Positions 51,101 to 63,920 of a DNA stretch of 64,000 nucleotides are shown in pieces. Under the pieces are notes generated by a model. That model was not told where the DNA came from, made no database searches, and saw nothing but the letters and a program-made list of their open reading frames with translations. A program made the position numbers and the translations under genes. Position 1 is the first letter of the stretch. Every line of letters begins with the position of its first letter. Source of the DNA: Mycobacterium sherrisii (GTDB lineage: Bacteria > Actinomycetota > Actinomycetes > Mycobacteriales > Mycobacteriaceae); contig NZ_LQPT01000077.1 of the NCBI RefSeq assembly GCF_002102355.1, forward strand, positions 60,152 through 124,151. Reading direction: 5' to 3'.

Positions 51101-52092
51101 GCCAGGTCCCAGCCCGGCAGCGGCAGTCCGATGCTGATCGGCCCCGGGCCGCCGAGCTTCGCCGCACACGCGACCACGGTGGCCTCGGTGGGGCCGTAAG
51201 TGTTCCACACCTCCCGACCGTCGACAGCGAGCCGCTCGACCAGCTCCGGTGGGCAGGCCTCGCCGCCAAAGATCAACAACCGCACGGCTTCTAGCGCCTC
51301 GCTGGGCCATAACGCGGCCAGGGCGGGCACGGTCGACACCACGGTCACATCGCGGGTGACCAGCCAGGGACCCAGGTCCATTCCGCTGCGCACGAGCGAC
51401 CGCGGCGCGGGGACCAGACACGCGCCGTGCCGCCACGCCAGCCACATCTCCTCACAGGAGGCGTCGAACGCCACCGAAAGCCCGGCCAGGACCCGGTCAC
51501 CGGGTCCAATGGGGTTGTCTTGTAGGAAGATTCGCGCCTCAGCGTCGACGAACGCGGCGGCACTGCGGTGCGTGACGGCTACCCCCTTCGGCGTGCCGGT
51601 GGACCCGGACGTGAAGATGATCCAGGCGTCGTCGCGCGCCAACGGCGCGGTGGCCCGCCAGCCTCGCGACGACCCGACACCGCGCACCAGGCCCGCCTCG
51701 GTGATGACGCCGACGACGCCGGCCTCGCCGAACACCAAGTCGGCGCGTTCGTCGGGGTCGTCCGCGTCGACCGGGACGTAGGCCGCGCCCGTGGCCAGCG
51801 TCGACAAGATCGCCACATACAGCGCGTAGTTGCCCGACGGCATCCGGATGCCGATCCGGTCGCCGCGGCCGATGCCCCGGGCGGCCAGCCATTCCACGCT
51901 CGCTTCGATGTCGCCGATCAGTTCGCTGTAGGTGAGTTGGACGGTGCCGTCGTCGATCGCGGTGGCGTCGGGGTGGCGCGCCGCGGTCTCGTAAAGGATG
52001 TCGATCAGCGTGCGCGGGCTGGGCGCAGCAGCGGACAGCGTGTACTGCGCCGGTACTCGCGCGGGGATGGGAGGCCCAGGAGGTAAAGGCAC
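48151..52092 (-). CDS. Pls/PosA-type membrane nonribosomal peptide synthetase (A-PCP-TM-LbH)
   Basis: A 1313-residue single-module synthetase. The adenylation domain (about 30-500) has IFTSGSTGTPKGVA, NTYGPTEATV, YRSGDLV, GRSDDQVKVGGRRIELGEID and GKVDRDALP. The carrier domain holds F-A-L-G-G-G-S545. The C-terminal half alternates membrane segments with three hexapeptide-repeat-like domains (about 690-870, 950-1080, 1170-1300). This is the layout of epsilon-poly-lysine synthetase. By eye the first specificity positions read D-A-E-S, as in lysine-activating domains. The GTG at 52092 lies six bases after TATTTT and gives the family length; the frame open to 52386 is ignored. Product unknown. Confidence 0.87.
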   Translation of the reverse strand: MPLPPGPPIPARVPAQYTLSAAAPSPRTLIDILYETAARHPDATAIDDGTVQLTYSELIGDIEASVEWLAARGIGRGDRIGIRMPSGNYALYVAILSTLATGAAYVPVDADDPDERADLVFGEAGVVGVITEAGLVRGVGSSRGWRATAPLARDDAWIIFTSGSTGTPKGVAVTHRSAAAFVDAEARIFLQDNPIGPGDRVLAGLSVAFDASCEEMWLAWRHGACLVPAPRSLVRSGMDLGPWLVTRDVTVVSTVPALAALWPSEALEAVRLLIFGGEACPPELVERLAVDGREVWNTYGPTEATVVACAAKLGGPGPISIGLPLPGWDLAVVDADTLPVAYGDVGELVIGGVGLARYLDKDRDAEKYAPMPSLGWSRAYRSGDLVRLERDGLYFCGRSDDQVKVGGRRIELGEIDSALVHLPGVSGGAAAVRHTAAGAPVLVGYVVSPDPSFDLQQARAALAAQLPAALAPRLVRIAELPTRTSGKVDRDALPWPPPVDESDGSAVLSGTAGWLTRLWRDLLGAFETGQVDTLEADFFALGGGSLAAAQLVAALRRQYPEVTVADLYDHPRLGSLAAFLDELDPPPPVTERVVRPTPAVTQLAQAVLALPLATLSALPWLTWLALGNNVARALHVVPWTVAVNWWLIAAAFAVFVTPVGRMGITVLCARLLLRKLRPGTYRRGGSVHLRIWFVERLAEAGGAHNLSGAPWLVYYARALGARIGKGVDLHSLPPVTGLLTMGHRSAVEPEVDLCGHWIDGDAFHVGEITIGNDATIGARSTLLPGAVVGKNADVAPGGGVRDKIKNGQYWKGSPAVKSGRVNHPWPDERPPRGASWAAWYGLTSVVLAALPLLAAGSGIAVIGFGVRHTHRLSQAVIPALAWTPLAALIALLVYAVLTVLAVRTLSLGLREGYHPVRSRPGWQLWATQRLMDAARTYLFPLYASLLTPVWLRLLGAKVGRGTEISTVLATPKFTVIEDGAFLADDTMVASYELGGGWIHAAPTAVGRRAFLGNSGITQPGRRVPDDGLVAVLSAAPPKAKRGSSWLGSPPMRLRRRPVDTDEATTYDPPQRLKVMRALVETLRLVPVFVSAGIGLAVLGGLQALARIFGIWWAAVGGGLVMLAAGVIAGVTTVAAKWLLVGRIRAGEFPLWSSFVWRNEVADTFVETVAAPWFARAASGTPMLNLWLRALGARIGRGVWCETYWLPEADLVTLGAGAAVGRGCVVQTHLFHDRIMRMDAVVFEPGATLGPHGVALPAARIGAGATVGPASLVVRGDEVPASTRWQGNPIKPWTVRRKKPRKNAARRGVQDTAA

Positions 52093-52098
52093 CCCACG

Positions 52099-52104
52099 AA
52101 AATA
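52099..52104 (-). promoter_or_regulatory. -10 box TATTTT for the Pls-type gene
   Basis: TATTTT, then CGTGGG, then GTG at 52092. It decides the start of a gene whose open frame extends 98 codons further upstream. Confidence 0.5.
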
Positions 52105-52344
52105 CTCACCATCCGGCGCCAGACCGGCGAGCGCGCGCGGCGTGTGACGGTGGTCGGTCTCCGGCGCGCTGCTCGAGCCAGTCGGCCAGCGAGCGCCCGC
52201 GTTCAGTACCTGGCGCTCGGCGATCGCGCGGGCCCGCTCGGCATCCTTCCCGCCGAGCGCGTGATCACGTCCCGGTATTCGTCGAGCGAATGTTTCTCGC
52301 GGTCGGGAAACAGCGTGAGGAAGTTGCTCGGCACTACTCGGGTT

Positions 52345-52370
52345 GATTGAAGGCGCTCTTGTCGGGGTAG
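52345..52370 (+). promoter_or_regulatory. SigF-like promoter GATT-N16-GGGTAG
   Basis: GATT (one change from GTTT), 16 bases, then GGGTAG, 49 bases before the second DUF6131 gene. It mirrors the stronger SigF site before the first copy. Confidence 0.4.
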
Positions 52371-52418
52371 TCCGGTGAATGATCAATTCGACTGACGCCC
52401 AATAGAAAGGGGCACGAC

Positions 52419-53372: not shown

Positions 53373-54770
53373 TCACGCGTTGGGCGCCACCGCAATCGAC
53401 ATGGTGTCCAGGTAGCCATCGATGCCCTCGGGACCCAGCTCGCGACCATAGCCGCTGCCCTTGACGCCGCCGAACGGCGCGAAGGGATCCATGGTGTAGC
53501 CCTGGTTGATTCCCAACGTCCCGGTGCGGACGCGCCCGGCGATCACCAGTGCCCGTTCGGTGTCGGCGCTCCATACCGATCCGGCCAGGCCGTAGTCGGA
53601 ATCGTTGGCGATCGACAGCGCATCGTCCTCGTCGCGGTAGGGGACGACGGTGATCACGGGCCCGAAGATCTCTTCGCGCGCAATCCGCATCGAGTTGTCG
53701 GCGGCGGCGAACAGGGTGGGACGGACATACCAGCCGCGGTCGAGGCCATCGGGCGGCTCGGTACCGCCGAGCACCATGCGGGCCCCCTCGGATTGGCCGA
53801 CGTCGATGTAGTTGCACACCCGTTGCCGTTGGCGCTGGGACACCAGCGGCCCCATCTGTGTGGCGGGATCGCTGGGATCACCCACGCGGATGCCGGCCAT
53901 TTCCGCGGCCAGCGCGTCGACGTATTCATCGTGGCGCTGCTCGGGCACCAGAACCCGAGTCAGCGCGTTGCAGATCTGCCCGCTGTTGGACAGGCTGGCC
54001 GAGCGCACGCCAGCGGCCACCTTCTCGGGTACGGCGTCGTCGAGGACGATGGCCGCGGACTTGCCGCCCAGCTCGAGACCGACCCTGGTCAGGTTGGCGC
54101 CGCACACCGCGGCGACGGCGCGGCCCGCCGCGGTGGAACCGGTGAACGACACTTTGTCCACACCCGGGTGACCGACCAGCTGCTCGCCGATCGCCGCGCC
54201 GCCGGGCAGCACGCTGACCACACCCGGCGGCAGGCCGATCTCGTTGATCATCTCGGCCAAAAGCAGTGCATCCAAAGGAGATTCGGGTGCCGGCTTGAGT
54301 ACCACCGGGCAGCCGGCCAGCAGCGCTGGCACCAGCTTGCTGACGATGAGGAACTGCGGCATGTTCCACGGCACGATTGCGGCGACCACCCCGACCGGCT
54401 GCTTGCGCACCAGGACCTCGCCGCCAAAGAACCCCGGCCGATTCTCCTGCCATCGGTGGCGCTCGGCCAGATCGCAAAACGCGCGCATCATCATCGCGGG
54501 CAGACCGACCTGGGCGCGCTGGGCGAAGGTGATCGGCGCGCCGATCTCGGCGGTGATCACGTCGGCCATCTCCGCGCGCCGCTTGTCGTAGCCGTCGGCC
54601 AGGCGGCGGATCGCGTCGATGCGCTCCGCCGGCTCCGTCCGGCTCCACGGCCCCGTGTCGAACGCGGCGCGGGCCGCGCCGACCGCCGCGTCGACATCGG
54701 CCGGCTCGGCGGCGGTGACCTGGGCAATCGGCTGTTCGGTGTGCGGTGAGATGACTTCCAAAACGTTCAC
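53373..54770 (-). CDS. NAD(P)-dependent aldehyde dehydrogenase
   Basis: A 465-residue aldehyde dehydrogenase. The cofactor-site V-P-W-N-M-P (about 134-139), LELGGKSAAIVLDD with the general-base glutamate (about 235-248), S-N-S-G-Q-I-C with the catalytic cysteine (about 267-273), EEIFGPVITV (about 364-373), and the end FGGVKGSGYGRELG are all intact. GGGAGG is five bases before the GTG start at 54770. It is divergent from the Rieske gene and shares a MarR-type site with it (54795-54804). It likely oxidises an aldehyde produced by the cluster. Confidence 0.92.
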   Translation of the reverse strand: MNVLEVISPHTEQPIAQVTAAEPADVDAAVGAARAAFDTGPWSRTEPAERIDAIRRLADGYDKRRAEMADVITAEIGAPITFAQRAQVGLPAMMMRAFCDLAERHRWQENRPGFFGGEVLVRKQPVGVVAAIVPWNMPQFLIVSKLVPALLAGCPVVLKPAPESPLDALLLAEMINEIGLPPGVVSVLPGGAAIGEQLVGHPGVDKVSFTGSTAAGRAVAAVCGANLTRVGLELGGKSAAIVLDDAVPEKVAAGVRSASLSNSGQICNALTRVLVPEQRHDEYVDALAAEMAGIRVGDPSDPATQMGPLVSQRQRQRVCNYIDVGQSEGARMVLGGTEPPDGLDRGWYVRPTLFAAADNSMRIAREEIFGPVITVVPYRDEDDALSIANDSDYGLAGSVWSADTERALVIAGRVRTGTLGINQGYTMDPFAPFGGVKGSGYGRELGPEGIDGYLDTMSIAVAPNA

Positions 54771-54794
54771 CCGGCCCTCCCAAGGCGGCAGTAT

Positions 54795-54804
54795 CAACTA
54801 CTTG
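54795..54804. promoter_or_regulatory. Putative MarR site CAACTACTTG between ALDH and Rieske 1
   Basis: Nine of ten bases match the palindrome CAAGTACTTG at 58191. On the minus strand CAAGTAGTTG is followed directly by ATACTG, just as the ferredoxin-side site is followed by ATACTC, so operator and -10 region are arranged alike in front of the dehydrogenase gene. Confidence 0.55.
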
Positions 54805-54863
54805 CGATTACCGGTGCGAGGATATACCGTCGGCCCGACACAGTCCCACGGACAGGAGTTGTC

Positions 54864-56141
54864 ATGCCCCGATTCCCCAAGCCGTCGGAGGGAAGCTGGA
54901 CGCAGCACTACCCCGAACTGGGCACCGGGCCGGTGTCCTACGAGGACTCGATCAGCCCGCAGATTTACGACCTCGAGCGCGACGCCATCTTCAAACGAGC
55001 CTGGCTGAATGTCGGCCGGGCGGAACAGGTTCCACGGAAGGGGAGCTATTTCACCAAAGAGCTGAAGGTCGTCAACACCTCAATTATCGTGGTGCGCAAC
55101 GGCTCTGGCGAGGTCAAGGCATATCACAACATCTGCCGGCATCGCGGCAACAAGCTGGTGTGGAACGACATGCCGCTGCAGGAGACCAGCGGTGTGTGCC
55201 GGCAATTCACCTGTAAGTACCACGCCTGGCGCTACGACCTGGACGGAAACCTGACCTTCGTCCAGCAGGAAAACGAGTTCTTCGACCTCGACAAGAGCCG
55301 GTACGGGCTGGTGCCGGTGCACTGCGAGGTTTGGGAAGGCTTCATCTTCGTCAACTTTGCCAAGCAGCCCGCCCAGTCGCTGCGGGACTTTCTCGGGCCG
55401 ATGGTGCTGGGACTGCAGGGCTACCCCTTCACCCGGATGACCTCCCGGTGGGCCTACCGGTCCGAGGTGAAAGCGAACTGGAAACTGTACATGGACGCGT
55501 TCCAGGAGTTCTATCACGCGCCGGTGCTGCACGCGAACCAGTCACCGACCGCCTATTCAAAGGCGGCCGCCGAGGCGGGATTCGAGGCTCCGCACTACCG
55601 CCTGGACGGTCCGCACCGATTGGTCAGCACCTCCGGAGTCCGGGCCTGGGAGATGGCCCCAGAGATGCGCAAGCCGATCGAGGATATCTGTCAGAGCGGA
55701 CTGTTCGGTCCCTGGGACAAACCAGACCTCGGTGAAATGCCATCCGGCCTGAACCCCGCGAAATGCGAACCGTGGGGCCTGGATTCGTTCCAGCTCTTCC
55801 CCAACTTCGTGATCCTGATCTGGAGCCAGGGCTGGTATTTGACCTATCACTACTGGCCGACGTCGCATCACAGCCACATCTTCGAGGGCACTCTGTATTT
55901 CCCGCAGCCGCGCACCCCGCGCGAGCGGGTGGCGCAGGAACTGGCCGCGGTGTCGTTCAAGGAGTACGGACTGCAGGACGCCAACACGCTGGAGGCCACC
56001 CAGAGCATGATCGAATCCCAGGTGCTCGACCGGTTCCTGCTCTGTGATCAGGAGATCCTGATTCGGCACCTGCACAAGGAGACCGCCGCATGGATCGAGG
56101 ACTACCGGCGCGCCACGGAGCAATCAACGGCGGGAGTGTGA
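54864..56141 (+). CDS. Rieske non-heme iron oxygenase alpha subunit, copy 1
   Basis: A 425-residue ring-hydroxylating-oxygenase-type protein. The Rieske 2Fe-2S ligands are C91-x-H93 (in CRHRGNK) and C117-x-x-H120 (in FTCKYHAW), with 23 residues between the pairs instead of the usual 15-17. The catalytic iron histidines are likely H218 and H223 in FQEFYHAPVLH, with D211 or E215 bridging. The C-terminal half has the SRPBCC-like fold. GGAG precedes the ATG. Its stop overlaps the start of the small partner gene. The paralogue at 59320 keeps all these positions. Substrate unknown. Confidence 0.9.
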   Translation: MPRFPKPSEGSWTQHYPELGTGPVSYEDSISPQIYDLERDAIFKRAWLNVGRAEQVPRKGSYFTKELKVVNTSIIVVRNGSGEVKAYHNICRHRGNKLVWNDMPLQETSGVCRQFTCKYHAWRYDLDGNLTFVQQENEFFDLDKSRYGLVPVHCEVWEGFIFVNFAKQPAQSLRDFLGPMVLGLQGYPFTRMTSRWAYRSEVKANWKLYMDAFQEFYHAPVLHANQSPTAYSKAAAEAGFEAPHYRLDGPHRLVSTSGVRAWEMAPEMRKPIEDICQSGLFGPWDKPDLGEMPSGLNPAKCEPWGLDSFQLFPNFVILIWSQGWYLTYHYWPTSHHSHIFEGTLYFPQPRTPRERVAQELAAVSFKEYGLQDANTLEATQSMIESQVLDRFLLCDQEILIRHLHKETAAWIEDYRRATEQSTAGV

Positions 56142-56467
56142 TCGCAGTGCTGCCAACCGAATTCGCCGATCTCGAGCCCTTTACGGAGTGGTGCCTGCCC
56201 ACCGAGCCGGAGCGCTACGCCAAGCGATTGACCAGCTCGATGACGGAGATGAAGGCCTTCTACGACGCGATCACTCCGCGTGCCGAGGAAGCGCTCAGCT
56301 ACTGTGACAAGTTCCCGCTCGACGGCCTGCCCGAGGACGTCCTCAACCTGATGCACCTGTTGTATTCGATGATCATGGTGTCCTTCCCGGTGGAGTGCTG
56401 GAAGCAACCCCGGGTGCCCGACTCGGGGGCTTCCACCCTGGAGTGCGTGGCCGAGCCCAGTCCATGA
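56138..56467 (+). CDS. Unrecognised ~110-residue Rieske-associated protein, copy 1
   Basis: A 109-residue, probably all-helical acidic protein. It shares roughly half its residues with the protein at 60591, in the pattern LP--FA-LE-----WC--TE-ER, then SSM--M-AFYDA--PR-EEA--YCDKF-LD-LP-D-LNL-HL-YS-IMV. Two cysteines (W-C and Y-C-D-K-F) are conserved. The GTG start overlaps the Rieske stop by 4 bases and its own stop overlaps the amidohydrolase ATG (ATGA). It is not a usual oxygenase beta subunit, which has an NTF2 fold and about 170 residues. I do not recognise the family. A subunit, stabiliser or electron-transfer adaptor are possibilities. Confidence 0.85.
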   Translation: MIAVLPTEFADLEPFTEWCLPTEPERYAKRLTSSMTEMKAFYDAITPRAEEALSYCDKFPLDGLPEDVLNLMHLLYSMIMVSFPVECWKQPRVPDSGASTLECVAEPSP

Positions 56468-57711
56468 CCACCGTCCTGCGCGCGGCCCGCTGGGCCGACG
56501 TCGACACCGGCGAGATCCACTCACCGGCAGTCGTGGTGATCGACGGCAACCGCATCACCGCCATCAATCCGGAAGGGCTAGTGCAGGATCCGTCCACGGT
56601 CGTCGACCTCGGCGACGTGACACTGCTGCCCGGCCTGATGGACATGGAACTCAACCTGCTCATCGGCGGGCCGGGCGGACCCGATGGATTACCCGCGCCG
56701 ATGCACGGCGTTCAAGACGACCCCGCGTACCGCACCCTGCGCGGCGCCGTCAACGCGCGGACCACCCTAAACGCCGGGTTCACCACCGTGCGCAACCTCG
56801 GGCTGATGGTCAAGACCGGTGGTTACCTGCTGGACGTCGCGCTGCAGCGGGCCATCGATCAGGGCTGGCATCCCGGTCCGCGGATCTATCCCGCGGGACA
56901 CGCCGTGACGCCGTACGGCGGACACCTGGATCCCACCGTGTTCCAACGGCTGGCGCCGGGCATCATGCCGCTATCGGTCGCCGAAGGCATCGCCAACGGG
57001 GTGCCCGACGTCATCGCGTGTGTGCGTTACCAGATTCGTCACGGCGCCAAGCTGATCAAGGTGTCGGCCTCCGGCGGGGTCATGTCACACAGCACCGCCC
57101 CGGGCGCCCAGCAGTATTCGGACGCCGAATTCGCCGCGATCGCCGACGAAGCCCACCGCGCCGGGGTGCGAGTCGCCGCCCACGCCGTCGGCGACTCGGC
57201 GATCCGGGCGTGCATTCGCGCGGGGATCGACTGCATCGAACACGGCTTTCTGGCCACCGACGAGACGATCCAGATGATGGTCGATCACGGCACCTTCCTG
57301 GTGTCCACCACCGGCCTCACCGACCTGATGGCGATCGACCGGATCGCCCCGGAACTGCGCAAGAAGGCCCAAGAAGTCTTCCCGCAGGCAAAAGCTATGC
57401 TGCCCAAAGCAATTGCCGCCGGCGTCCGTATCGCCTGCGGCTCCGATGCACCCGCGATCCCGCACGGTCAGAACGCGGAGGAGCTCGAGGCCCTGGTGGC
57501 GCGGGGAATGACTCCGATGCAAGCGATCCGGGCGGCCACCGTGGTGGCCGCCGAACTCATCGACGCCGATCATGAGCTGGGCCGCCTCAAACCCGGCTAC
57601 CTCGCCGACGTGATCGCGGTTCCGGGCGACCCATCACGCGATATCACAGCCACAATGGACGTCTCCTTCGTGATGAAGGATGGACAAATCCACAAGTCGC
57701 CCATCAGCTAG
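56464..57711 (+). CDS. Amidohydrolase-superfamily protein without the HxH metal motif
   Basis: A 415-residue TIM-barrel protein of the imidazolonepropionase/prolidase-like group. The first strand normally ends P-G-L-I-D-x-H-x-H. Here it is P-G-L-M-D60-M-E62-L-N64, so both histidines are lost. The rest of the metal site is present: K in KLIKVSASGG (about 199-208), H in VAAHAVGD (about 239-246), H in IEHGF (about 260-264) and D in CGSDAP (about 328-333). It may use one metal or a different set of ligands. It starts within the small partner gene (ATGA) and is followed by the MarR gene after 14 bases. Confidence 0.85.
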   Translation: MTTVLRAARWADVDTGEIHSPAVVVIDGNRITAINPEGLVQDPSTVVDLGDVTLLPGLMDMELNLLIGGPGGPDGLPAPMHGVQDDPAYRTLRGAVNARTTLNAGFTTVRNLGLMVKTGGYLLDVALQRAIDQGWHPGPRIYPAGHAVTPYGGHLDPTVFQRLAPGIMPLSVAEGIANGVPDVIACVRYQIRHGAKLIKVSASGGVMSHSTAPGAQQYSDAEFAAIADEAHRAGVRVAAHAVGDSAIRACIRAGIDCIEHGFLATDETIQMMVDHGTFLVSTTGLTDLMAIDRIAPELRKKAQEVFPQAKAMLPKAIAAGVRIACGSDAPAIPHGQNAEELEALVARGMTPMQAIRAATVVAAELIDADHELGRLKPGYLADVIAVPGDPSRDITATMDVSFVMKDGQIHKSPIS

Positions 57712-57725
57712 AGCGGAGCCCCGGC

Positions 57726-58181
57726 ATGGAACTCAGCGAAAACATTCTGTGGCTGCTCAAGCAGGCCTTCTACTTCTCGTTGACGACGGTGAACGACGCG
57801 ATCAGTCCGCACGGAGTCAGCACGGCCCAGATCGGTGTGCTGCGCCAACTTTCCAACGAACCCGGCCTGTCCGGCGCCGAACTGGCCCGGCGGCTGCTGA
57901 TCACCCCGCAAGGTGTCCAGCTGGCGGTCACCGCCCTGGAACGCCGCGGTCTGGTGGAGCGCAGACCGGATCCCGGGCACAAGCGCATCCTGCGGGCCTA
58001 TCTGACGGATCAGGGACGAGATGTCGTGGCCCAGGTACTCGGCGCTGCCATTGACGCGCACGAAAAGGTGTTCGGCGTGCTCAGCGCCGACGAACAGGAG
58101 ACGCTATGCGAATTGCTGGGCCGGGTCGTGGAAAAGGGCACCGGCCACGAGCTGACCCAGCGCGATATATCTAGTACTTGA
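57726..58181 (+). CDS. MarR-family regulator of the Rieske cluster
   Basis: A 151-residue winged-helix regulator. The DNA-binding part has GLSGAELARRLLITPQGVQLAVTAL, split about 47-71, and the wing RRPDPGHKRILRAYLT (about 79-94). The dimer interface helices are the two ends. The 3' end of the gene contains the first of two CAAGTACTTG-like sites and the stop codon falls within it. It is therefore in an ideal position to control the promoter of the ferredoxin gene at 58214. MarR proteins are usually released by a phenolic or acyl-CoA ligand; none is indicated here. Confidence 0.88.
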   Translation: MELSENILWLLKQAFYFSLTTVNDAISPHGVSTAQIGVLRQLSNEPGLSGAELARRLLITPQGVQLAVTALERRGLVERRPDPGHKRILRAYLTDQGRDVVAQVLGAAIDAHEKVFGVLSADEQETLCELLGRVVEKGTGHELTQRDISST

Positions 58182-58200
58182 GATGAATAACAAGTACTTG
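58171..58200. promoter_or_regulatory. Two MarR-type operators 20 bp apart
   Basis: CTAGTACTTG (58171-58180) and the perfect palindrome CAAGTACTTG (58191-58200) have AGTACT centres exactly 20 bp apart, two helical turns. The second one touches the -10 box of the ferredoxin gene. A variant lies at 54795. Confidence 0.7.
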
Positions 58201-58201
58201 A

Positions 58202-58207
58202 TACTCT
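58202..58207 (+). promoter_or_regulatory. -10 box TACTCT for leaderless ferredoxin gene
   Basis: TACTCT, then six bases (GCCCAC), then ATG at 58214. No ribosome binding site is seen. Confidence 0.55.
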
Positions 58208-58213
58208 GCCCAC

Positions 58214-58534
58214 ATGCAGGAGTCCCGCGCGCCGTCGTATGCCGGACCTGCCGACGGTGGCACCGAGAAGGTGACCATCGAGCTCGATCGGTCCACCACC
58301 ACGGTGGCCTACTCGGCGGGCGACACCCTGCTGCAAACCGCGCGAATGGCCGGCCTGTCTCCGCCGTCGTCGTGCGAGGTCGGTTCGTGCGGAACATGTA
58401 TGGCCCGGCTGACCGAGGGTTGCGCGCGGATGCTCAACAACGATGCGCTCGAAGACGACGAGGTGGCCGAGGGTTGGGTGCTGACCTGCCAGGCCCTACC
58501 AACCAGCCCCACGGTACGGGTGGTCTACGAGTGA
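58214..58534 (+). CDS. Plant-type 2Fe-2S ferredoxin
   Basis: A 106-residue ferredoxin. The cluster ligands are C54, C59 and C62 in SCEVGSCGTC, and C92 in L-T-C-Q-A. The fold runs from about 18 (KVTIELD) to the end. Such ferredoxins feed electrons to Rieske oxygenases, and this is the only one in the cluster, so it probably serves both copies. No reductase gene is in sight, so one must be supplied from elsewhere. The gene is the first after the MarR operators and seems leaderless. Confidence 0.9.
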   Translation: MQESRAPSYAGPADGGTEKVTIELDRSTTTVAYSAGDTLLQTARMAGLSPPSSCEVGSCGTCMARLTEGCARMLNNDALEDDEVAEGWVLTCQALPTSPTVRVVYE

Positions 58535-58541
58535 GGTGGGC

Positions 58542-59285
58542 ATGAGCAGGGTGGCCGTCGTGACCGGCGGTGCGTCGGGTATGGGTGAGGCGACCTGCCA
58601 CGAGCTGGCGCGTAGGGGGCTCGGCGTCGCGGTCCTCGATATCAACGAGCAAGCGGCGCAACGTGTTACCGAAGACTTGCGGGCGGTCGGGGCCACCGCG
58701 ATCGGTCTGGTCGCCGATGTCACCGAACGGGACGCCGTCGAGCACGCGTTCGCCATGGTGCGCAGCGAGCTGGGACCGGTGTCGGTGCTGGTGACCAGCG
58801 CGGGGATGTTCGGGTTTTCCCCGTTCGCCGACATCACCCCGGAGTCCTGGTCGAAGATCATCGACGTCAATCTGACCGGGACGTTCCACTGCTGCCAGGT
58901 TGCATTGCCGGACATGGTCGCCGCGAAATGGGGCCGGATCGTGATGATTTCGTCGTCCAGCGCCCAGCGGGGGTCACCATTCGCCGCCCACTATGCGGCG
59001 GCTAAGGGTGCGGTCATCACCCTCACCAAATCGCTGGCCCGCGAGTACGCGTCGCACGGGATCACGGTAAACAACATCCCGCCCTCGGGCATCGAAACCC
59101 CGATGCAGCATCAGGCGCAGGCCGCGGGATACCTCAAGTCCAACGAAGAGATCGCCAGCAACATCCCGCTGGGGCACTTGGGCACCGGAGCCGACATCGC
59201 CGCGGCGGTCGGGTTCCTGGCGTCCGAAGAAGCCGGCTTCATCACCGGCCAGGTGCTGGGTGTCAACGGCGGAGCGGTGATGTGA
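58542..59285 (+). CDS. Short-chain dehydrogenase/reductase of the Rieske cluster
   Basis: Classical SDR of 247 residues. The cofactor motif T-G-G-A-S-G-M-G is at 8-15 and D33 in V-L-D-I-N suggests NAD. N-L-T-G and the catalytic Ser in MISSSSAQRG and Y-A-A-A-K (about 149-153) are intact. The usual N-N-A-G reads V-T-S-A-G here. G-V-N-G-G at the end is typical. It starts 7 bases after the ferredoxin stop. It would oxidise an alcohol or a cis-diol from the oxygenase step. Confidence 0.9.
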   Translation: MSRVAVVTGGASGMGEATCHELARRGLGVAVLDINEQAAQRVTEDLRAVGATAIGLVADVTERDAVEHAFAMVRSELGPVSVLVTSAGMFGFSPFADITPESWSKIIDVNLTGTFHCCQVALPDMVAAKWGRIVMISSSSAQRGSPFAAHYAAAKGAVITLTKSLAREYASHGITVNNIPPSGIETPMQHQAQAAGYLKSNEEIASNIPLGHLGTGADIAAAVGFLASEEAGFITGQVLGVNGGAVM

Positions 59286-59319
59286 CGGCTCAAAGCCGCC
59301 AAGCCACGAGGAGGTTCAG

Positions 59320-60588
59320 ATGACGCGAGAGGATAGGCCCCCGGAGGGCTCGTGGACCGAACACTATCCCGAACTGGGCACGGGCGATATCTCGTTCGCC
59401 GACTCCACGTCCAAAGAATTCTTCGAGGACGAACGGGAAGCGGTCTTCAAGCGCGCGTGGCTCAACGTGGCCCGGATCGACGAGCTGCCACGCATCGGTA
59501 GCTACGTCACCAAGGAGATCGAGGTCGCCCGGACGTCGGTCATCCTGGTCAAGGGGGGCGACGAACAGATCCGCGCCTTCTACAACGTCTGCCGTCACCG
59601 GGGAAACAAGCTGGTGTGGAACGACTTTCCCAACGAGGCGACCCACGGAACTTGTCGTCAGTTCACCTGCAAGTACCACGGCTGGCGCTACGATCTCGAC
59701 GGCACGCTGAAATTCGTGCAGCAGGAATCGGAGTTCTTCGACCTCGATACCGCCGACTACGGCCTGCGTCCGGTGCACTGCGACATCTGGAACGGTTTCA
59801 TCTTCATCAACTTCGACGCCGAGCCGCGGCAGAGCCTGCGAGAGTTCCTGGGCCCGATGATCACCGGCCTGGACGGCTACCCCTTCGGCAAATTGACCGA
59901 ACGCTACGAATGGGTGGCCCACAACAACAGCAACTGGAAGATTTTCGCCGACGCCTTTCAGGAGTACTATCACGTGCCGTCGCTGCACCCACAACAGGTG
60001 CCTCCGGAGGTGCGCGACCCAAAGGCCGGATTCACTTGCGGCCATTTCCAACTCGACGGTCCGCACCGATTGGTGTCGACGGCGGGACGGCGCCGCTGGC
60101 TGCTGCCGGAGGAATATATGTATCCGATCGAGCGCGTCACCCAGAGCGGGCTCGTCGGCCCCTGGCGCACCCCGGACATCGGCGAGTTGCCGGCCGGGCT
60201 CAACCCCGGCGGCATCGAACCCTGGGGGATCAGCAACTTCCAGATCTTCCCCAACACCGAAATATTGATCTACGGCGGCTGGTATCTGCTGTACCGATAC
60301 TGGCCCACGTCGCACAACACCCATCGGTTCGAGGCCTATACCTACTTCAGCCCGGCGCGTAGCGTACGCGAGCGCATCGAGCACGAAGTCGCCGCGGTCG
60401 TCCTCAAGGAATTTGCCCTGCAGGACGCCGGGATGCTCGGCGGCACCCAGGCCGCCCTGGAGTACGGCATCGTCGACGAGTTCCCGCTCAACGATCAGGA
60501 GATCTTGGTCCGGCATCTCCACAACGTGGTCGTCGACTGGGTTCAGGAGTATCGGCAGCAGCACGCTCCGGCGCGGGCGGGAGTTTGA
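59320..60588 (+). CDS. Rieske non-heme iron oxygenase alpha subunit, copy 2
   Basis: A 422-residue paralogue of the protein at 54864. The Rieske ligands C91, H93, C117, H120 fall at identical positions. The catalytic motif is FQEYYHVPSLH with H218 and H223. The N-terminal GSWTEHYPELGTG and many long stretches are nearly the same, while the helix after H223 and the region about 225-245 differ, which is where substrate contacts would be expected. GAGGAGG precedes the ATG. The small partner gene starts 2 bases after the stop. Confidence 0.9.
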   Translation: MTREDRPPEGSWTEHYPELGTGDISFADSTSKEFFEDEREAVFKRAWLNVARIDELPRIGSYVTKEIEVARTSVILVKGGDEQIRAFYNVCRHRGNKLVWNDFPNEATHGTCRQFTCKYHGWRYDLDGTLKFVQQESEFFDLDTADYGLRPVHCDIWNGFIFINFDAEPRQSLREFLGPMITGLDGYPFGKLTERYEWVAHNNSNWKIFADAFQEYYHVPSLHPQQVPPEVRDPKAGFTCGHFQLDGPHRLVSTAGRRRWLLPEEYMYPIERVTQSGLVGPWRTPDIGELPAGLNPGGIEPWGISNFQIFPNTEILIYGGWYLLYRYWPTSHNTHRFEAYTYFSPARSVRERIEHEVAAVVLKEFALQDAGMLGGTQAALEYGIVDEFPLNDQEILVRHLHNVVVDWVQEYRQQHAPARAGV

Positions 60589-60590
60589 CC

Positions 60591-60926
60591 ATGCCAGATG
60601 CGTTGCTGCCCAGCGGTTTCGCCGAGCTGGAGAGCTATGCCCGGATCTGGTGTATGGCCACCGAGACCGAGCGCTGGAATAGGCGCATAGCCAGCAGCAT
60701 GGCGGATATGCACGCGTTCTACGACGCGTTCTTCCCTCGACTCGAAGAGGCTATCAACTACTGCGACAAGTTCGACCTCGACGATCTCCCGGACGACACG
60801 CTGAACCTGTTGCACCTGATCTATTCCCTGATCATGGTCGCCATGGCGGTGGAGATCATGCACCAACCCGCCCCGACCGACGCCGCCGACGCGGTGATGA
60901 TCCGTACCGACGCGCCGGTGCCCTAG
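60591..60926 (+). CDS. Unrecognised ~110-residue Rieske-associated protein, copy 2
   Basis: A 111-residue paralogue of the protein at 56138. It keeps the WC, TETER, SSMADM, AFYDA and YCDKF blocks. The C-terminal 15 residues diverge. The fact that each Rieske gene has its own copy directly after it argues for a specific pairwise partnership. No signal peptide or membrane segment. The ATG at 60591 follows the Rieske stop by 2 bases; a TTG at 60585 is also possible. Confidence 0.85.
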   Translation: MPDALLPSGFAELESYARIWCMATETERWNRRIASSMADMHAFYDAFFPRLEEAINYCDKFDLDDLPDDTLNLLHLIYSLIMVAMAVEIMHQPAPTDAADAVMIRTDAPVP

Positions 60927-60952
60927 CGCATGTCGTGCAGAGAGGACAGACC

Positions 60953-61798
60953 ATGAGTCTGCTCACCATCACCAAGCTCAGCGCCTGCGTCGGTGCCGAA
61001 GTCACCGGCCTGGATCCCGCGCGCCTGGGCGGCAACGACCCAGTGGCGGAAACGATCCTGCAAGCGTTAGAGGACAACGGAGTTCTTGTCTTCCGCGAGT
61101 TGGGACTCCAACCGGAGGCCCAGGTCCAGTTCTGCCGCCGCCTCGGCGCCATCGACCACTCTTCGGACGGCCACCACCCGGTCGCCGGCATCTACCCAGT
61201 CACCCTGGACACTGCGAAGAACGCCTCGGCCGCCTACCTGAAGGCGACGTTCGATTGGCATATCGACGGATGCACGCCGACTGGCGACGACTATCCGCAA
61301 AAGGCCACCGTGCTGTCGGCCGTACAGGTGGCCGACCGGGGCGGTGAGACCGAGTTCGCCTCGGCCTACGCTGCTTACGAGGCGCTGACCGACGACGAGA
61401 AGCACCGCTTCGGTGTGTTGCGAGTGGTGCATTCGCTGGAGGCGTCCCAGCGTCGCGTCACGCCGGACCCCACTGCCGAGCAGTTGGCACGGTGGCGCTC
61501 CCGGCGCACCCACGAACATCCGTTGGTGTGGACGCACCGCAGCGGCCGCAAGTCCCTGGTGCTGGGCGCCTCGGCGGACTACGTGGTGGGGATGGATCTC
61601 GACGAGGGCCGCGCCCTGCTGGCCGAGCTGCTGGACCGGGCCACCATCCCGGACAACGTCTACAGTCATAGCTGGTCGATCGGTGACACCGTCATCTGGG
61701 ACAACCGCGGCGTGCTGCACCGGGCGGCGCCCTACGATCCGGATTCGCAGCGAGAGATGTTGCGCACCACCGTTCTTGGCGACGAGCCGATTCAGTAG
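60953..61798 (+). CDS. TauD/TfdA-type Fe(II)/2-oxoglutarate dioxygenase
   Basis: A 281-residue dioxygenase. The iron ligands are H103 and D105 in DWHIDG and the distal histidine in V-L-H-R-A-A-P. The 2-oxoglutarate-binding arginine is likely in R-E-M-L-R-T-T. The middle region (RGGETEFASAYAAYEAL) is typical of TauD-like enzymes. GAGAGGACAG precedes the ATG. Two oxygenase chemistries, Rieske and 2-oxoglutarate, in one cluster suggest that a substrate is hydroxylated or dealkylated at two places. Taurine is not implied. Confidence 0.9.
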   Translation: MSLLTITKLSACVGAEVTGLDPARLGGNDPVAETILQALEDNGVLVFRELGLQPEAQVQFCRRLGAIDHSSDGHHPVAGIYPVTLDTAKNASAAYLKATFDWHIDGCTPTGDDYPQKATVLSAVQVADRGGETEFASAYAAYEALTDDEKHRFGVLRVVHSLEASQRRVTPDPTAEQLARWRSRRTHEHPLVWTHRSGRKSLVLGASADYVVGMDLDEGRALLAELLDRATIPDNVYSHSWSIGDTVIWDNRGVLHRAAPYDPDSQREMLRTTVLGDEPIQ

Positions 61799-61806
61799 GT
61801 CCACAC

Positions 61807-62352
61807 ATGAGCAACCGGCATCCGCTGCGGCTGGCCCCGCTGCCCGCCGATGAATGGGACGACCACAGCCGCGGCGCCATCGCCGCGCTGATTCCGCCCG
61901 AGCGGGCCCATCCGGCGGGTGCCGGCAATGTGTTGTCGACCCTGGTTCGCCACCCGGAGCTGACGCGGGCCTATCTGCCGTTCAACGCCTATTTGCTGAC
62001 GCGCTCGACGTTGTCGCCCCGGGTCCGCGAAGTGGCGCTGCTGCGGGTGGTCTCCCGGCGCGACTGCGGCTATCTGTGGGGGCACCATCTTCCGATCGCC
62101 CGCCGGGCGGGACTGACCGACGGTGACATCGCGGGCATTCGGGACGGCAACCTCGCCGACGCCACCGACCAGGCGGTACTGCGGGCCGTGGACGACCTGG
62201 TCGACGGCGGCACCATCCGCACGCCGGTCTGGGAAGCGCTGGGCGACCATTTCACCGATCAGCAGCGGATGGATCTGGTGTTCACCATCGGTGGTTACGT
62301 GCTATTAGCCATGGCGGTCAACACGTTCGGCATAGCAGACGAGGAACAGTGA
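61807..62352 (+). CDS. Carboxymuconolactone decarboxylase/AhpD-fold protein
   Basis: A 181-residue protein of the CMD/AhpD fold. The active helix is VREVALLRVVSRRDCGYLWGHHLPIA, split about 74-99, with C88 and H94/H95. AhpD's C-x-x-C is not present; only the first cysteine is. C-terminal helices include DLVDGGTIRTPVWEALGDHF. Such proteins are often last in aromatic-degradation clusters, with unclear function. It starts 8 bases after the TauD stop and is the last plus-strand gene of the cluster. Confidence 0.84.
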   Translation: MSNRHPLRLAPLPADEWDDHSRGAIAALIPPERAHPAGAGNVLSTLVRHPELTRAYLPFNAYLLTRSTLSPRVREVALLRVVSRRDCGYLWGHHLPIARRAGLTDGDIAGIRDGNLADATDQAVLRAVDDLVDGGTIRTPVWEALGDHFTDQQRMDLVFTIGGYVLLAMAVNTFGIADEEQ

Positions 62353-62472: not shown

Positions 62473-63531
62473 TCAGCAGCGCCGCAGGGCCAAGGAAAGG
62501 TAGACAAGTCCAACGAGGACGGGGACTTCGATTAACGGTCCGACCACGCCGGCCAGGGCTTGGCCGGACGTCACGCCAAAGGTGCCGATCGCCACGGCGA
62601 TGGCTAGTTCGAAGTTGTTACCAGCCGCGGTGAACGCCAACGTGGTGGTCCGGGCGTAGCCGAGCCGCAGGGCCACTCCGAGGGCGTATCCGCCGGCCCA
62701 CATGATCGCGAAGTAGGCCAACAACGGGAGCGCGATGCGGGCGACATCCCATGGCCGGGAGGTGATCTGGTGTCCCTGCAAGGCGAACAGGATGACGATG
62801 GTGAACAACAGACCGTACAGTGCCCATGGTCCGATACGTGGAAGGAATTGGGCCTCGTACCAACGCCGGCCCTTGGCACGTTCGCCGAGAAGGCGGGACA
62901 GGTACCCGCCCAGCAGCGGGATGCCGAGAAAGATCAGCACGGATCTCGCGATGTCCCACGGGGAGACGGAGATGCCGGTTTGCGGCAGACCCAGCCATCC
63001 GGGCAGCACGGACAAATAGAACCAGCCCAGCACGGCAAACATCACCACTTGGAAGATCGAGTTGAGCGCGACCAGGACCGCTGCCGCTTCGCGGTCTCCG
63101 CACGCCAAGTCGTTCCAGATGATGACCATGGCGATGCAGCGGGCCAGGCCGACGATGATCAGACCGGTGCGGTATTCGGGAAGATCGGCGAGCAGCAGCC
63201 ATGCCAAGGTGAACATCATCGCCGGTCCAACCAGCCAATTGAGCACCAGCGAGGCGACCATGAGTTTGCGGTCGTCGGTGATCTCGCCGAGCTGGTCGTA
63301 GCGCACCTTGGCAAGCACCGGGTACATCATCACCAACAGGCCCAGCGCGATCGGTAGCGAAATGCCCTGGATCTCAACAGCGCTCAGCGCCGATCCCAAA
63401 CCTGGCACCATCCGGCCAAGTAGGAGACCGGCGGCGATGGCCAGCCCGATCCACAGCGGAAGCGTCCGGTCCAAGGTCGAAAGCCGGGCGACTGTGCGTG
63501 CGGCCGCCGGCCCGCCCCCGGTCTGTATCAC
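62473..63531 (-). CDS. acr3: Arsenite efflux permease Acr3
   Basis: A 352-residue transporter with ten membrane segments of the bile-acid/arsenite (ACR3) family. The conserved cysteine of the transport path is in GLARCIAMVIIWNDLACGD (about 132-150), and the NNFELAIAVAIGTFG segment (about 306-320) is typical. It expels As(III) across the plasma membrane. The GTG start overlaps the arsR stop (GTGA) and gives the family length; the longer frame upstream lies in arsR. No arsenate reductase gene is next to it in the window. Confidence 0.9.
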   Translation of the reverse strand: MIQTGGGPAAARTVARLSTLDRTLPLWIGLAIAAGLLLGRMVPGLGSALSAVEIQGISLPIALGLLVMMYPVLAKVRYDQLGEITDDRKLMVASLVLNWLVGPAMMFTLAWLLLADLPEYRTGLIIVGLARCIAMVIIWNDLACGDREAAAVLVALNSIFQVVMFAVLGWFYLSVLPGWLGLPQTGISVSPWDIARSVLIFLGIPLLGGYLSRLLGERAKGRRWYEAQFLPRIGPWALYGLLFTIVILFALQGHQITSRPWDVARIALPLLAYFAIMWAGGYALGVALRLGYARTTTLAFTAAGNNFELAIAVAIGTFGVTSGQALAGVVGPLIEVPVLVGLVYLSLALRRC

Positions 63532-63884
63532 GGGCAGCGCTCCGCGAGCATGTCGTTGACGTTCAATGTGGATGAAAGTTGCTGCAAAGCCGAGGGAATC
63601 ACCCAGTAGTACACCCAGGTGCCGCGACGTTCGCAATCGATCAGGCCGGCCGAACGCAACAGTTTGAGATGGTGGGAAATCGTTGGTTGGGAGACGTCGA
63701 ACGTCGCCGAGATTTCACAGACGCAAGCCTCCCCGCCGGGATGGCTCGCGATCAGGCTTAGCAATCGCAGCCGCACCGGGTCGCTGAGCGCTTTGAACAT
63801 CGTCGCCAAGGTAGCGGCCCGCGAGTCGTCGAGCGCCGTCGCGCCCAAACTCGGGCAACACCCCGGCGGCGTTTGATTCGACAT
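63528..63884 (-). CDS. arsR: Arsenical-responsive repressor ArsR
   Basis: A 118-residue SmtB/ArsR-type repressor. The metal-binding C-V-C is in EACVCEIS in helix alpha-3, the DNA-recognition helix is VSQPTISHHLKLL, and the wing is LIDCERRGTWVYYWV. A further Cys pair near the N-terminus (P-P-G-C-C-P) may take part in sensing. The ATG at 63884 is preceded by AGAAGA and by a TATA-rich -10 region (TTATATAG) where it probably represses itself and acr3. Confidence 0.9.
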   Translation of the reverse strand: MSNQTPPGCCPSLGATALDDSRAATLATMFKALSDPVRLRLLSLIASHPGGEACVCEISATFDVSQPTISHHLKLLRSAGLIDCERRGTWVYYWVIPSALQQLSSTLNVNDMLAERCP

Positions 63885-63901
63885 TCTTCTATATAAGCAC
63901 A

Positions 63902-63920
63902 TGCGGTGGGTTCCGCCGCA
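63902..63920 (-). terminator. Hairpin after the edge gene
   Basis: TGCGGTGG-GTT-CCGCCGCA makes an eight-pair stem with one G-U type pair, directly after the stop codon of the minus-strand gene at 63921. No T tract. Confidence 0.5.

What the first reader, a model, noticed from the sequence alone, without database searches (positions are those of the whole stretch)
53373..62352. Ten-gene cluster with two Rieske oxygenase/small-protein pairs: candidate undescribed catabolic system
Seen directly: ALDH (divergent), then Rieske 1, a ~110-aa protein, an amidohydrolase, MarR, ferredoxin, SDR, Rieske 2, a second ~110-aa protein, TauD dioxygenase and an AhpD-fold protein, with overlaps or gaps of 1-44 bases. 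Each Rieske gene is directly followed by its own copy of the small gene. Established: Rieske alpha subunits need a ferredoxin and reductase and may have NTF2-fold beta subunits. Inferred: two oxygenases with dedicated partners attack one substrate class sequentially or at two sites, then SDR/ALDH and hydrolase steps follow. The substrate is unknown.
Basis: partly seen in the sequence, partly recalled or inferred. Interest (0 to 1): 0.88.

Follow-up and report, generated by a model that had tools for sequence, protein, structure and literature searches.

The report
Paired Rieske oxygenases with unknown helical partner
A conserved mycobacterial gene cluster encodes two related oxygen-adding enzymes, each with its own small helical partner protein from an unnamed family, and in some relatives one of the two enzymes has rebuilt its iron-sulphur site while keeping its catalytic site, which suggests the two work together.

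Summary
Genes: divergent ALDH, then R1-S1-amidohydrolase-MarR-Fd-SDR-R2-S2-TauD-CMD (eleven, not ten). The order recurs in 80 named loci, the best of 453 S relatives. S matches no Pfam or NCBIfam model; it is predicted as four helices (pLDDT 89), with no significant Foldseek match. All 214 S genes in three S-led locus sets (overlapping genomes) have R directly upstream; in 22 genomes R and S counts match (65:65). R-S pairs also occur on Rhodococcus and proteobacterial plasmids, some beside an NTF2-type protein; three plasmid regions opened have S without an adjacent complete R.

(2) The window's ferredoxin is the C-terminal domain of a reductase that is full-length in 38 of 75 loci. (3) R2 lacks the Rieske relay histidine in 24 of 79 sequences (21 now 3Cys+1His) while its catalytic triad stays in 79 of 79; R1 is canonical in 72 of 72 (window, canonical in both, counted). 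This favours R1 and R2 working together over two independent oxygenases. The substrate is unknown.

The parts
53373..54797 (-). Aldehyde dehydrogenase, divergent member of the regulon; true start probably 54770 (GTG), because operator 1 overlaps the TTG at 54797 (inference)
   Evidence: PF00171 E 1.2e-154; present in 65 of 80 loci; the 7 ALDH genes that lie at the other end of the cluster all have the operator at their 5' end
54792..54807 (.). Operator 1, TATCAACTACTTGCGA (3 mismatches to TATCAAGTACTTGATA), ALDH/R1 divergent promoter
   Evidence: a site lies upstream of R1 in 71 of 71 loci with a readable R1 start
54864..56141 (+). R1, Rieske oxygenase alpha subunit, canonical Rieske ligands
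   Evidence: PF00355 and PF00848; CHCH ligands in 72 of 72 R1 incl. the window
56138..56467 (+). S1, small helical partner (GTG start, 4-base overlap with R1)
   Evidence: no Pfam/NCBIfam match; 51% identical to S2
56464..57711 (+). Amidohydrolase-superfamily hydrolase (AMH) with ExN in place of the HxH metal motif
   Evidence: PF01979; ExN in 92 of 92 distinct readable homologues; closest solved 3mtw, 8ihq
57726..58181 (+). MarR-family regulator, likely cluster repressor (inference)
   Evidence: PF12802 E 1.3e-17; present in 77 of 80 loci
58168..58183 (.). Operator 2, TATCTAGTACTTGAGA (2 mismatches)
58188..58203 (.). Operator 3, TAACAAGTACTTGATA (1 mismatch), in front of Fd
   Evidence: site in the MarR-Fd gap in 74 of 77 loci
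58214..58534 (+). Plant-type [2Fe-2S] ferredoxin; C-terminal domain of a GbcB/PaaE-like reductase whose FAD/NAD domain is absent here
   Evidence: PF00111; best NCBIfam match PaaE positions 257-351; fused in 38 and short in 37 of 75 loci
58536..59285 (+). Short-chain dehydrogenase
   Evidence: PF13561 E 3.6e-61
59320..60588 (+). R2, second Rieske oxygenase alpha subunit; canonical here, re-ligated Rieske site in 24 of 79 R2 examined
   Evidence: Rieske oxygenase fold
60585..60926 (+). S2, small helical partner of R2 (TTG start, 4-base overlap)
   Evidence: AlphaFold2 pLDDT 89, four helices; no Foldseek match at E <= 0.001
60935..61798 (+). TauD/TfdA-type 2-oxoglutarate dioxygenase
   Evidence: PF02668 E 4.1e-57; 79 of 80 loci
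61807..62352 (+). CMD/AhpD-fold protein, optional member
   Evidence: PF02627 E 1.3e-10; 32 of 80 loci

Best explanation
It is a MarR-controlled Rieske mono- or dioxygenase system, probably catabolic, in which two paralogous alpha subunits (R1, R2) work together. Each alpha has its own small helical protein (S), which I take to be an obligate subunit or assembly factor. R1 kept a normal Rieske cluster in every sequence read and is the electron-donating alpha; R2 kept the catalytic iron site in every sequence read. In a mixed ring, R1's Rieske cluster would feed the catalytic iron of a neighbouring R2. NADH electrons enter through a GbcB/PaaE-like reductase encoded in the cluster, or, as in this window where only its ferredoxin domain remains, through a reductase encoded elsewhere. 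The product would be processed by the amidohydrolase, SDR, TauD enzyme and aldehyde dehydrogenase. Shown here by computation: conserved gene order, the R-S pairing, the operator sites, the reductase-to-ferredoxin reduction, the ligand changes in R2 orthologues and the ExN motif. Inferred: the R1:R2 mixed assembly, the role of S, MarR binding, the enzyme order and the substrate class (an amide or N/O-alkyl compound is my guess, low confidence).
For: R-S pairing: 32 of 32, 30 of 30 and 152 of 152 S genes in three S-led locus sets (overlapping genomes) have R directly upstream, BLAST ends -60 to 260 bases apart; R-led, 30 of 30 loci fetched hold S; R and S counts agree in 22 of 22 genomes, 65:65. 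S class matches R class in 207 of 209 pairs; R and S distances over 188 distinct pairs correlate at 0.93, mostly between classes (within R1 0.88, R2 0.59, R3 0.90). R1/R2 asymmetry: R1 CHCH in 72 of 72; R2 CHCH in 55 of 79, CRCC 13, CQCC 2, CHCC 7, CHCS 2, with H218/H223/D392 and E215 kept in 79 of 79. All 24 lose H120, by motif position the ligand that relays electrons to the adjacent subunit in biphenyl dioxygenase (H123-D230-H233; PMC3536784 passages; that H123 is the CxxH histidine is recalled). Non-canonical against canonical R2: Rieske domain 61% identical, catalytic domain 89%. One regulon: 215 operator sites in 83 kb of cluster promoter intervals against 15 in 1.43 Mb elsewhere, 7 of those 15 at the 5' ends of relocated ALDH genes.
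Against: In the window both R1 and R2 are canonical, so nothing in this sequence forces a mixed assembly. The non-canonical R2 group could instead have a working 3Cys-1His cluster, or take electrons straight from the fused reductase, present in 23 of the 23 non-canonical loci where it could be read. Its Rieske domain is still under purifying selection (dN/dS 0.13-0.22 in the six close non-canonical pairs printed; 0.06-0.12 in the three canonical pairs), so it has some function. That S follows the catalytic domain of R2 more than its Rieske domain (0.70 against 0.47 over all R2) vanishes inside each group (canonical 0.71 and 0.67, non-canonical 0.85 and 0.84) and in R1 (0.68 and 0.69), so where S binds is open. 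No complex was modelled; the R2 model is only moderate (pLDDT 75.5). S occurs without an adjacent complete R beside linC and in Cupriavidus necator p1. Substrate and reaction are untested.
Confidence: 0.45

Rival explanations
1. Two independent Rieske oxygenases (each alpha plus S) act on one compound at two sites or in sequence.
For: R1 and R2 are both complete and canonical in the window and only 56% identical; each has its own S copy.
Against: 24 of 79 R2 sequences have lost the relay histidine yet keep a strongly conserved catalytic domain, hard to explain if R2 must work alone; R1 and R2 share one reductase or ferredoxin gene and one operator.
Confidence: 0.3
2. R2 in the fast-growing lineage carries a redox-active 3Cys-1His [2Fe-2S] cluster that still delivers electrons, so R2 remains self-sufficient.
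For: 21 of 24 non-canonical R2 have three Cys (91, 117, 120) plus one His at 93 or 96, an orderly re-ligation rather than random loss; all 23 with a readable reductase have the fused one.
Against: Two of 24 have Ser at 120 and one lacks the His; a Cys cannot take the same hydrogen bond as the relay His (inference); the domain evolves faster.
Confidence: 0.15
3. S is an assembly chaperone or regulatory protein, not a resident subunit.
For: S is small, helical and without a significant fold match; a GST-like protein is needed for solubility and activity in NdmCDE (PMC4408171 passages); S coexists with NTF2-type proteins.
Against: One-to-one numbers of R and S even when several R genes are present suggest a dedicated partner rather than one shared chaperone.
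Confidence: 0.35
4. The R2 Rieske changes are decay of a dispensable duplicate.
For: Faster evolution of the Rieske domain in that group (mean pairwise dN/dS 0.31 against 0.12 in canonical R2).
Against: The catalytic domain is about as constrained as elsewhere (0.08 against 0.06); Cys 91 and 117 are kept in 24 of 24 and Cys 120 in 22 of 24; S2 is no more variable there (mean distance 0.180 against 0.197).
Confidence: 0.1

Closest known systems
CntA / GbcA / stachydrine demethylase (quaternary-ammonium Rieske oxygenases)
   Same: Nearest solved structure to R2 by sequence (6y9c, E 7.1e-27) and among the nearest by fold (4quq, 3vca, 6y9d, with terephthalate and biphenyl dioxygenases close behind); acidic residue three before the first Fe-ligand His is Glu in both (alignment); a GbcB/PaaE-like reductase in 38 of 75 loci
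   Different: By sequence only the first ~225 residues align; NCBIfam GbcA score 131 (R1) and 119 (R2) against a cut-off of 670; no S protein is known to me for CntA or GbcA (recalled)
NdmC-NdmD-NdmE caffeine N7-demethylase
   Same: Precedent for a catalytic subunit without its own Rieske cluster that takes electrons from another polypeptide and needs a helper protein (PMC4408171, passages seen)
   Different: There the extra Rieske domain sits on the reductase and the helper is GST-like; here the proposed donor is a paralogous alpha and the helper is a small helical family
Micromonas chlorophyllide a oxygenase in two chains
   Same: A Rieske oxygenase found in two polypeptide chains (PMC9615114, passages seen; that Rieske and Fe sites are divided between the chains is recalled, its reference 27 is not held)
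   Different: Eukaryotic, chlorophyll synthesis, no S-like protein known to me
IadD/IadE-IadC auxin dioxygenase
   Same: Rieske oxygenase with a single reductase, which can be dispensable in some strains (PMC10374108, passages seen)
   Different: Heterohexamer with a beta subunit and a defined substrate; no second alpha described in the passages seen
Xaa-Pro dipeptidase / arginine carboxypeptidase / ochratoxinase amidohydrolases (3mtw, 2qs8, 4c5y)
   Same: Closest relatives of the cluster amidohydrolase
   Different: HxH metal motif replaced by ExN in 92 of 92 distinct readable homologues, comparable to QxN of single-metal E. coli NagA (PMC6016474 passages)

Membership tests
Rieske non-haem iron oxygenase alpha subunit | Rieske motif C-x-H...C-x2-H | tested here: met
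   Window R1 and R2 canonical; 24 of 79 R2 (window counted) do not meet it
Rieske non-haem iron oxygenase alpha subunit | 2-His-1-Asp mononuclear iron site | tested here: met
   H218, H223, D392 in 79 of 79 R2 (window counted); 71 of 72 R1, one row gapped at the Asp
Rieske non-haem iron oxygenase alpha subunit | Rieske plus catalytic domain fold | tested here: met
   Pfam domains; Foldseek E 2.2e-22 to stachydrine demethylase from a moderate model
Rieske oxygenase beta subunit (NTF2-like), for S | NTF2-like fold or Ring_hydroxyl_B match | tested here: not met
   No Pfam match for S1, S2, S3 or 9 diverse S proteins; all-helical model
Glycine betaine monooxygenase GbcA | NCBIfam equivalog cut-off | tested here: not met
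   R1 131.4 and R2 118.7 bits against 670
GbcB/PaaE-type FNR reductase, for Fd | FAD and NAD domains fused to C-terminal [2Fe-2S] domain | tested here: not met
   Window has the Fd domain alone (106 aa); 38 of 75 loci have the long form (domain identity of the long form judged from its translation, no Pfam scan run on it)
Xaa-Pro dipeptidase (NF051886), for AMH | Curated score and HxH binuclear metal site | tested here: not met
   360.8 bits against 500; ExN instead of HxH
MarR regulator | MarR winged helix and palindromic operator near its own gene | tested here: met
   PF12802; 16-base palindrome. Binding not tested
Mixed R1:R2 oligomer with S | Physical complex of R1, R2 and S | not testable with these tools
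   No complex prediction available

The most novel reading that the evidence does not exclude
A new architecture of Rieske oxygenase: a mixed ring of two paralogous alpha subunits, each with an obligate helical third-type subunit (S) from an unnamed family, in which one alpha (R1) is the dedicated electron donor and the other (R2) the catalytic subunit. In fast-growing mycobacteria and Aldersonia this division has gone so far that R2 exchanged its 2Cys-2His Rieske site for a 3Cys-1His metal site while its catalytic domain stayed nearly unchanged.
Probability: 0.35. Interest if true: 0.85.

Novelty: new variant of a known kind. Interest (0 to 1): 0.7.

Why it matters
S is a conserved protein family without a Pfam, NCBIfam or PHROGs match in the members tested and tied to Rieske oxygenases from mycobacteria to Acinetobacter; where the plasmid records opened annotate it, it is called 'hypothetical protein'. 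If S is a subunit or assembly factor, expressing these alpha subunits without it may fail. The R2 ligand series (CHCH, CHCC, CRCC with a new His) lets one ask directly whether a Rieske oxygenase subunit can give up its own cluster and borrow a neighbour's. It also gives natural 3Cys-1His versions of a Rieske domain for study.

Tried and rejected
S as NTF2-type beta subunit: rejected, all-helical and coexisting with SnoaL/NTF2-type proteins. S as phage-borne: no match in phages, no confirmed relative in viral contigs, none in PHROGs. Fold relatives of S: none at E <= 0.001 in PDB or BFVD (best E 1.9 and 1.4); the second structural aligner was not on the machine. CheA and designed-protein hits of a four-row S profile (E 0.01-0.06) were set aside as helical chance matches. 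Identification as a known pathway: ten literature searches gave no match that I recognised (listings only). Passages of five papers were seen. Auxin (iac/iad) identity was considered and rejected: no NTF2-type beta in the window cluster and no matching gene set; this is my judgement, not a scored test. Nitrogenous-substrate hint (formamidase beside R-S in Acinetobacter and Novosphingobium): left as a weak lead. The SBF/ArsR-like genes next door are shared by 2 of 80 loci only, so not part of the system. That S binds the catalytic domain was an idea; the within-group figures there do not support it, so it is not claimed.

Mended on checking: the 'R1 upstream' figure (71 of 77) counted six loci without R1, where the script took R2 instead; the recount is 71 of 71. 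The 146 likewise counts some R2 genes twice and is not used. The ExN figure (97 rows) holds repeats of the same gene; the recount is 92 of 92 distinct readable sequences. In one search the script named D211 as the electron-bridging acid; the residue at the right spacing is Glu215, three before H218, kept in 72 of 72 R1 and 79 of 79 R2. None of this changes the odds.

Rows dropped before counts: searches used R hits over 330 aa (71 R1 and 78 R2 of the 80 loci, plus the window); one search had 98 distinct amidohydrolase rows, 6 not covering ExN and 3 not covering the other ligands; one search used 72 of 80 loci with R2, SDR and Fd all readable, plus the window; trees used 69 thinned rows.
Full report
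WHAT IS THERE. The window is G000:C77:60152-124151 of a 5.56-Mb genome. R1 and R2 are Rieske alpha subunits, 56% identical. S1 and S2 are 109 and 113 aa, 51% identical, with no Pfam or NCBIfam match.

THE CLUSTER IS CONSERVED. A scan of named genomes with an S alignment matched 475 stretches; 453 encode an S relative and the best 80 were kept, all Mycobacteriaceae or Aldersonia by title. They are ranked by likeness to S2, so they are enriched for this cluster; the other 373 were not seen. Mapping the window's proteins on those 80 loci gives one order: R1, S1, AMH, MarR, Fd, SDR, R2, S2, TauD, with CMD optional and ALDH divergent in front or, in seven loci, at the far end. Counts of 80: R2 80, S2 80, TauD 79, SDR 78, MarR 77, AMH 76, Fd 75, S1 73, R1 72, ALDH 65, CMD 32. 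In a sample of 198 genomes of the genus 157 have an S gene; about 110 have two or more with a best E of 1e-38 or better (my hand count from the table). In the phylum sample 13 of 396 genomes have S, ten of them in this genus.

R AND S ARE A PAIR. S-led: 32 of 32, 30 of 30 and 152 of 152 S genes have R directly upstream, BLAST ends -60 to 260 bases apart (the three locus sets overlap in genomes). R-led: in a sample of 200 genomes of the order, 23 have an R at E <= 1e-70; 30 of 30 loci fetched hold S. For the 22 genomes counted in both directions R and S numbers are equal, 65 and 65 (thresholds differ between the searches). The class of S follows the class of R in 207 of 209 pairs; over 188 distinct pairs R and S distances correlate at 0.93, and within classes at 0.88 (R1), 0.59 (R2) and 0.90 (R3). 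The own genome has a third pair, on contig C19, again followed by an AMH paralogue and then SnoaL and two acyl-CoA dehydrogenase-type genes. In the loci looked at, AMH follows S in most R1- and R3-type pairs but not in L056 and L066. So I take R-S-AMH as the basic unit, and R2-S2 as the added pair.

S OUTSIDE MYCOBACTERIA. Two Sphingomonas plasmids match S2 directly, each beside R. Seven plasmid records have an R homologue at E <= 1e-60, 33-38% identical. I opened six of them; the seventh, Acinetobacter YH12138, was not opened, but an S hit lies just downstream of its R by coordinates. All six have an S-like gene beside R. S comes before R in Novosphingobium resinovorum, and a second S in Novosphingobium EMRT-2 precedes another Rieske gene. 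In Acinetobacter and EMRT-2 an NTF2/SnoaL-type protein also follows, so S does not replace the beta subunit there. A further S-led look at plasmids (6 and 14 records) opened eight regions: R is adjacent in five (L204-L208; S before R in L207 and L208; R annotated in two pieces in L205), and no complete R lies within 3 kb in three: L201 and L202, the same linC-EthD-S segment beside IS6100, and L203. Five further hits with the same identity and score as L201 were not opened. L201 has only a fragment of an R gene beyond IS6100. These are real exceptions to the pairing.

WHAT S LOOKS LIKE. AlphaFold2 on 69 S sequences gives four helices, pLDDT 89, pTM 0.77. Foldseek finds nothing at E <= 0.001 in PDB or BFVD. 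Positions invariant in those 69 are P9, F12, W22, E27, R30, R34 and L75. S2 distances follow R2's catalytic domain (r 0.70) better than its Rieske domain (0.47) over all R2, but not within canonical (0.71, 0.67) or non-canonical R2 (0.85, 0.84) nor for R1 (0.68, 0.69). So the data do not say which domain S touches; they say only that S2 did not speed up when the Rieske domain did (mean distance 0.180 against 0.197).

REGULATION. A 16-base palindrome, TATCAAGTACTTGATA, occurs in the window at 54792 (3 mismatches), 58168 (2) and 58188 (1) and nowhere else at 4 or fewer mismatches. A 10-base core search finds 3 sites against 0.38 expected; 1 of 100 shuffles had as many. Over 80 loci there are 215 sites in 83 kb of the two promoter intervals and 15 in 1.43 Mb elsewhere; 71 of 71 readable R1 upstream regions and 74 of 77 MarR-Fd gaps have one, L084, L116 and L153 being without. 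Seven of the 15 others lie 6-89 bases from the 5' ends of the seven ALDH genes that stand at the other end of the cluster. So ALDH belongs to the regulon, and there is probably an internal promoter before Fd. That MarR binds these sites is inferred.

THE FERREDOXIN. In 38 of 75 loci the gene at this place is a long open frame that reads as an FAD/NAD reductase with the ferredoxin domain at its C-terminus; in 37 of 75, as in the window, only the ferredoxin part remains (split at 250 aa of open frame). The window protein begins MQESRAPSYAGPADG, close to the start of the long protein in M. rhizamassiliense (MQDSRALSYAGPA), then goes straight into the ferredoxin. On a quick tree of 73 rows the label needs five changes, at least four forced by supported branches, so the reduction was repeated or the gene was exchanged. 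Other reductase genes exist in the genome, the best at 39% identity on C28, and a second lone ferredoxin on C19. A Rieske reductase can be dispensable in other systems (PMC10374108 passages).

THE R2 SURPRISE. At the four Rieske ligands R1 reads CHCH in 72 of 72, the window included. R2 reads CHCH in 55 of 79, CRCC in 13, CQCC in 2, CHCC in 7 and CHCS in 2. The window's R2 is canonical. All 24 departures lose H120; 21 of 24 end with three Cys and one His, at 93 or at 96. H218, H223, D392 and E215 are kept in 79 of 79. Against canonical R2 the Rieske domain is 61% identical and the catalytic domain 89%. Twenty R sequences from elsewhere, plasmids included, all read CHCH. With R1, R3 and plasmid R sequences in the tree, 22 of 23 non-canonical sequences group together in the catalytic-domain tree with L154 apart (2 changes), and all 23 group in the Rieske-domain tree, where long branches may help. 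In the six close non-canonical pairs printed, dN/dS is 0.13-0.22 in the Rieske domain and 0.02-0.05 in the catalytic domain; in three canonical pairs 0.06-0.12 and 0.05-0.06: faster, but not neutral. In biphenyl dioxygenase the Rieske ligand H123 is hydrogen-bonded through D230 to H233 of the adjacent subunit, and changing the Asp kills activity (PMC3536784 passages). R2 has Glu215 at the Asp place, as the aligned CntA sequence has Glu. So the donor half of the relay is lost in these R2 proteins while the acceptor half is kept. The simplest reading is that R2 receives electrons from a neighbour that is not R2, and R1 is the obvious candidate. The fused reductase, present in 23 of 23 of these loci where readable but also in 15 of 52 canonical ones, is the alternative. 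Fast growers dominate the group, so the link with the reductase is confounded by ancestry.

THE AMIDOHYDROLASE. AMH is closest to the Xaa-Pro dipeptidase / carboxypeptidase / ochratoxinase branch but has M-E-[LVI]-N where 3mtw has HxH, in 92 of 92 distinct readable homologues (98 distinct rows, 6 not covering). Lys, two His and Asp at the other ligand positions are kept in 95 of 95. The only other paralogue found in the genome at E <= 1e-10, on C40, has HxH by my reading of its DNA. E. coli NagA has QxN and a single metal (PMC6016474 passages). I infer a single-metal hydrolase.

VERDICT. The nearest known kinds are Rieske oxygenases of the CntA/GbcA group and split systems such as NdmCDE. Novelty lies in S and in the R2 ligand series. 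No paper in the held library surfaced under the ten searches named in Tried and rejected; this is no proof that none exists. The claims on the mixed ring, the role of S and the substrate are untested.

Noticed in passing
L091, L096, L097, L098, L099, L103, L106, L115, L118, L124, L139, L148, L154, L100, L111, L110, L117, L137, L138, L143, L145, L151, L136, L146 (R2 genes): Rieske ligand sets other than 2Cys-2His in R2 orthologues, mostly of fast-growing mycobacteria and Aldersonia, with an intact catalytic triad.
   Followed up: yes
window 58214-58534; L149: Lone ferredoxin that keeps the N-terminal residues of a fused reductase, an apparent internal loss of the FAD/NAD domain, repeated in the genus.
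   Followed up: partly
window 56464-57711; L041:11496-12821: Rieske-linked amidohydrolases with ExN instead of HxH.
   Followed up: partly
L201, L202 (and hits H19, H20, H21, H23, H24, not opened): S orthologue beside linC and an EthD gene next to IS6100 copies in HCH-degrader plasmids, without a complete Rieske gene within 3 kb.
   Followed up: partly
window 62473-63902: SBF-family transporter (Acr3-like by my reading) with an ArsR-like gene (by my reading) next to the cluster; shared by 2 of 80 loci only.
   Followed up: no
window 48151-52386 (-): 1411-aa ORF that reads like an adenylation/carrier protein fused to membrane segments and left-handed-helix acyltransferase repeats (my reading of the translation; no domain search run).
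   Followed up: no
L154 between MarR and SDR, L152 between MarR and Fd: Insertions of 4.5 and 6.3 kb with large ORFs at the MarR/Fd junction.
   Followed up: no
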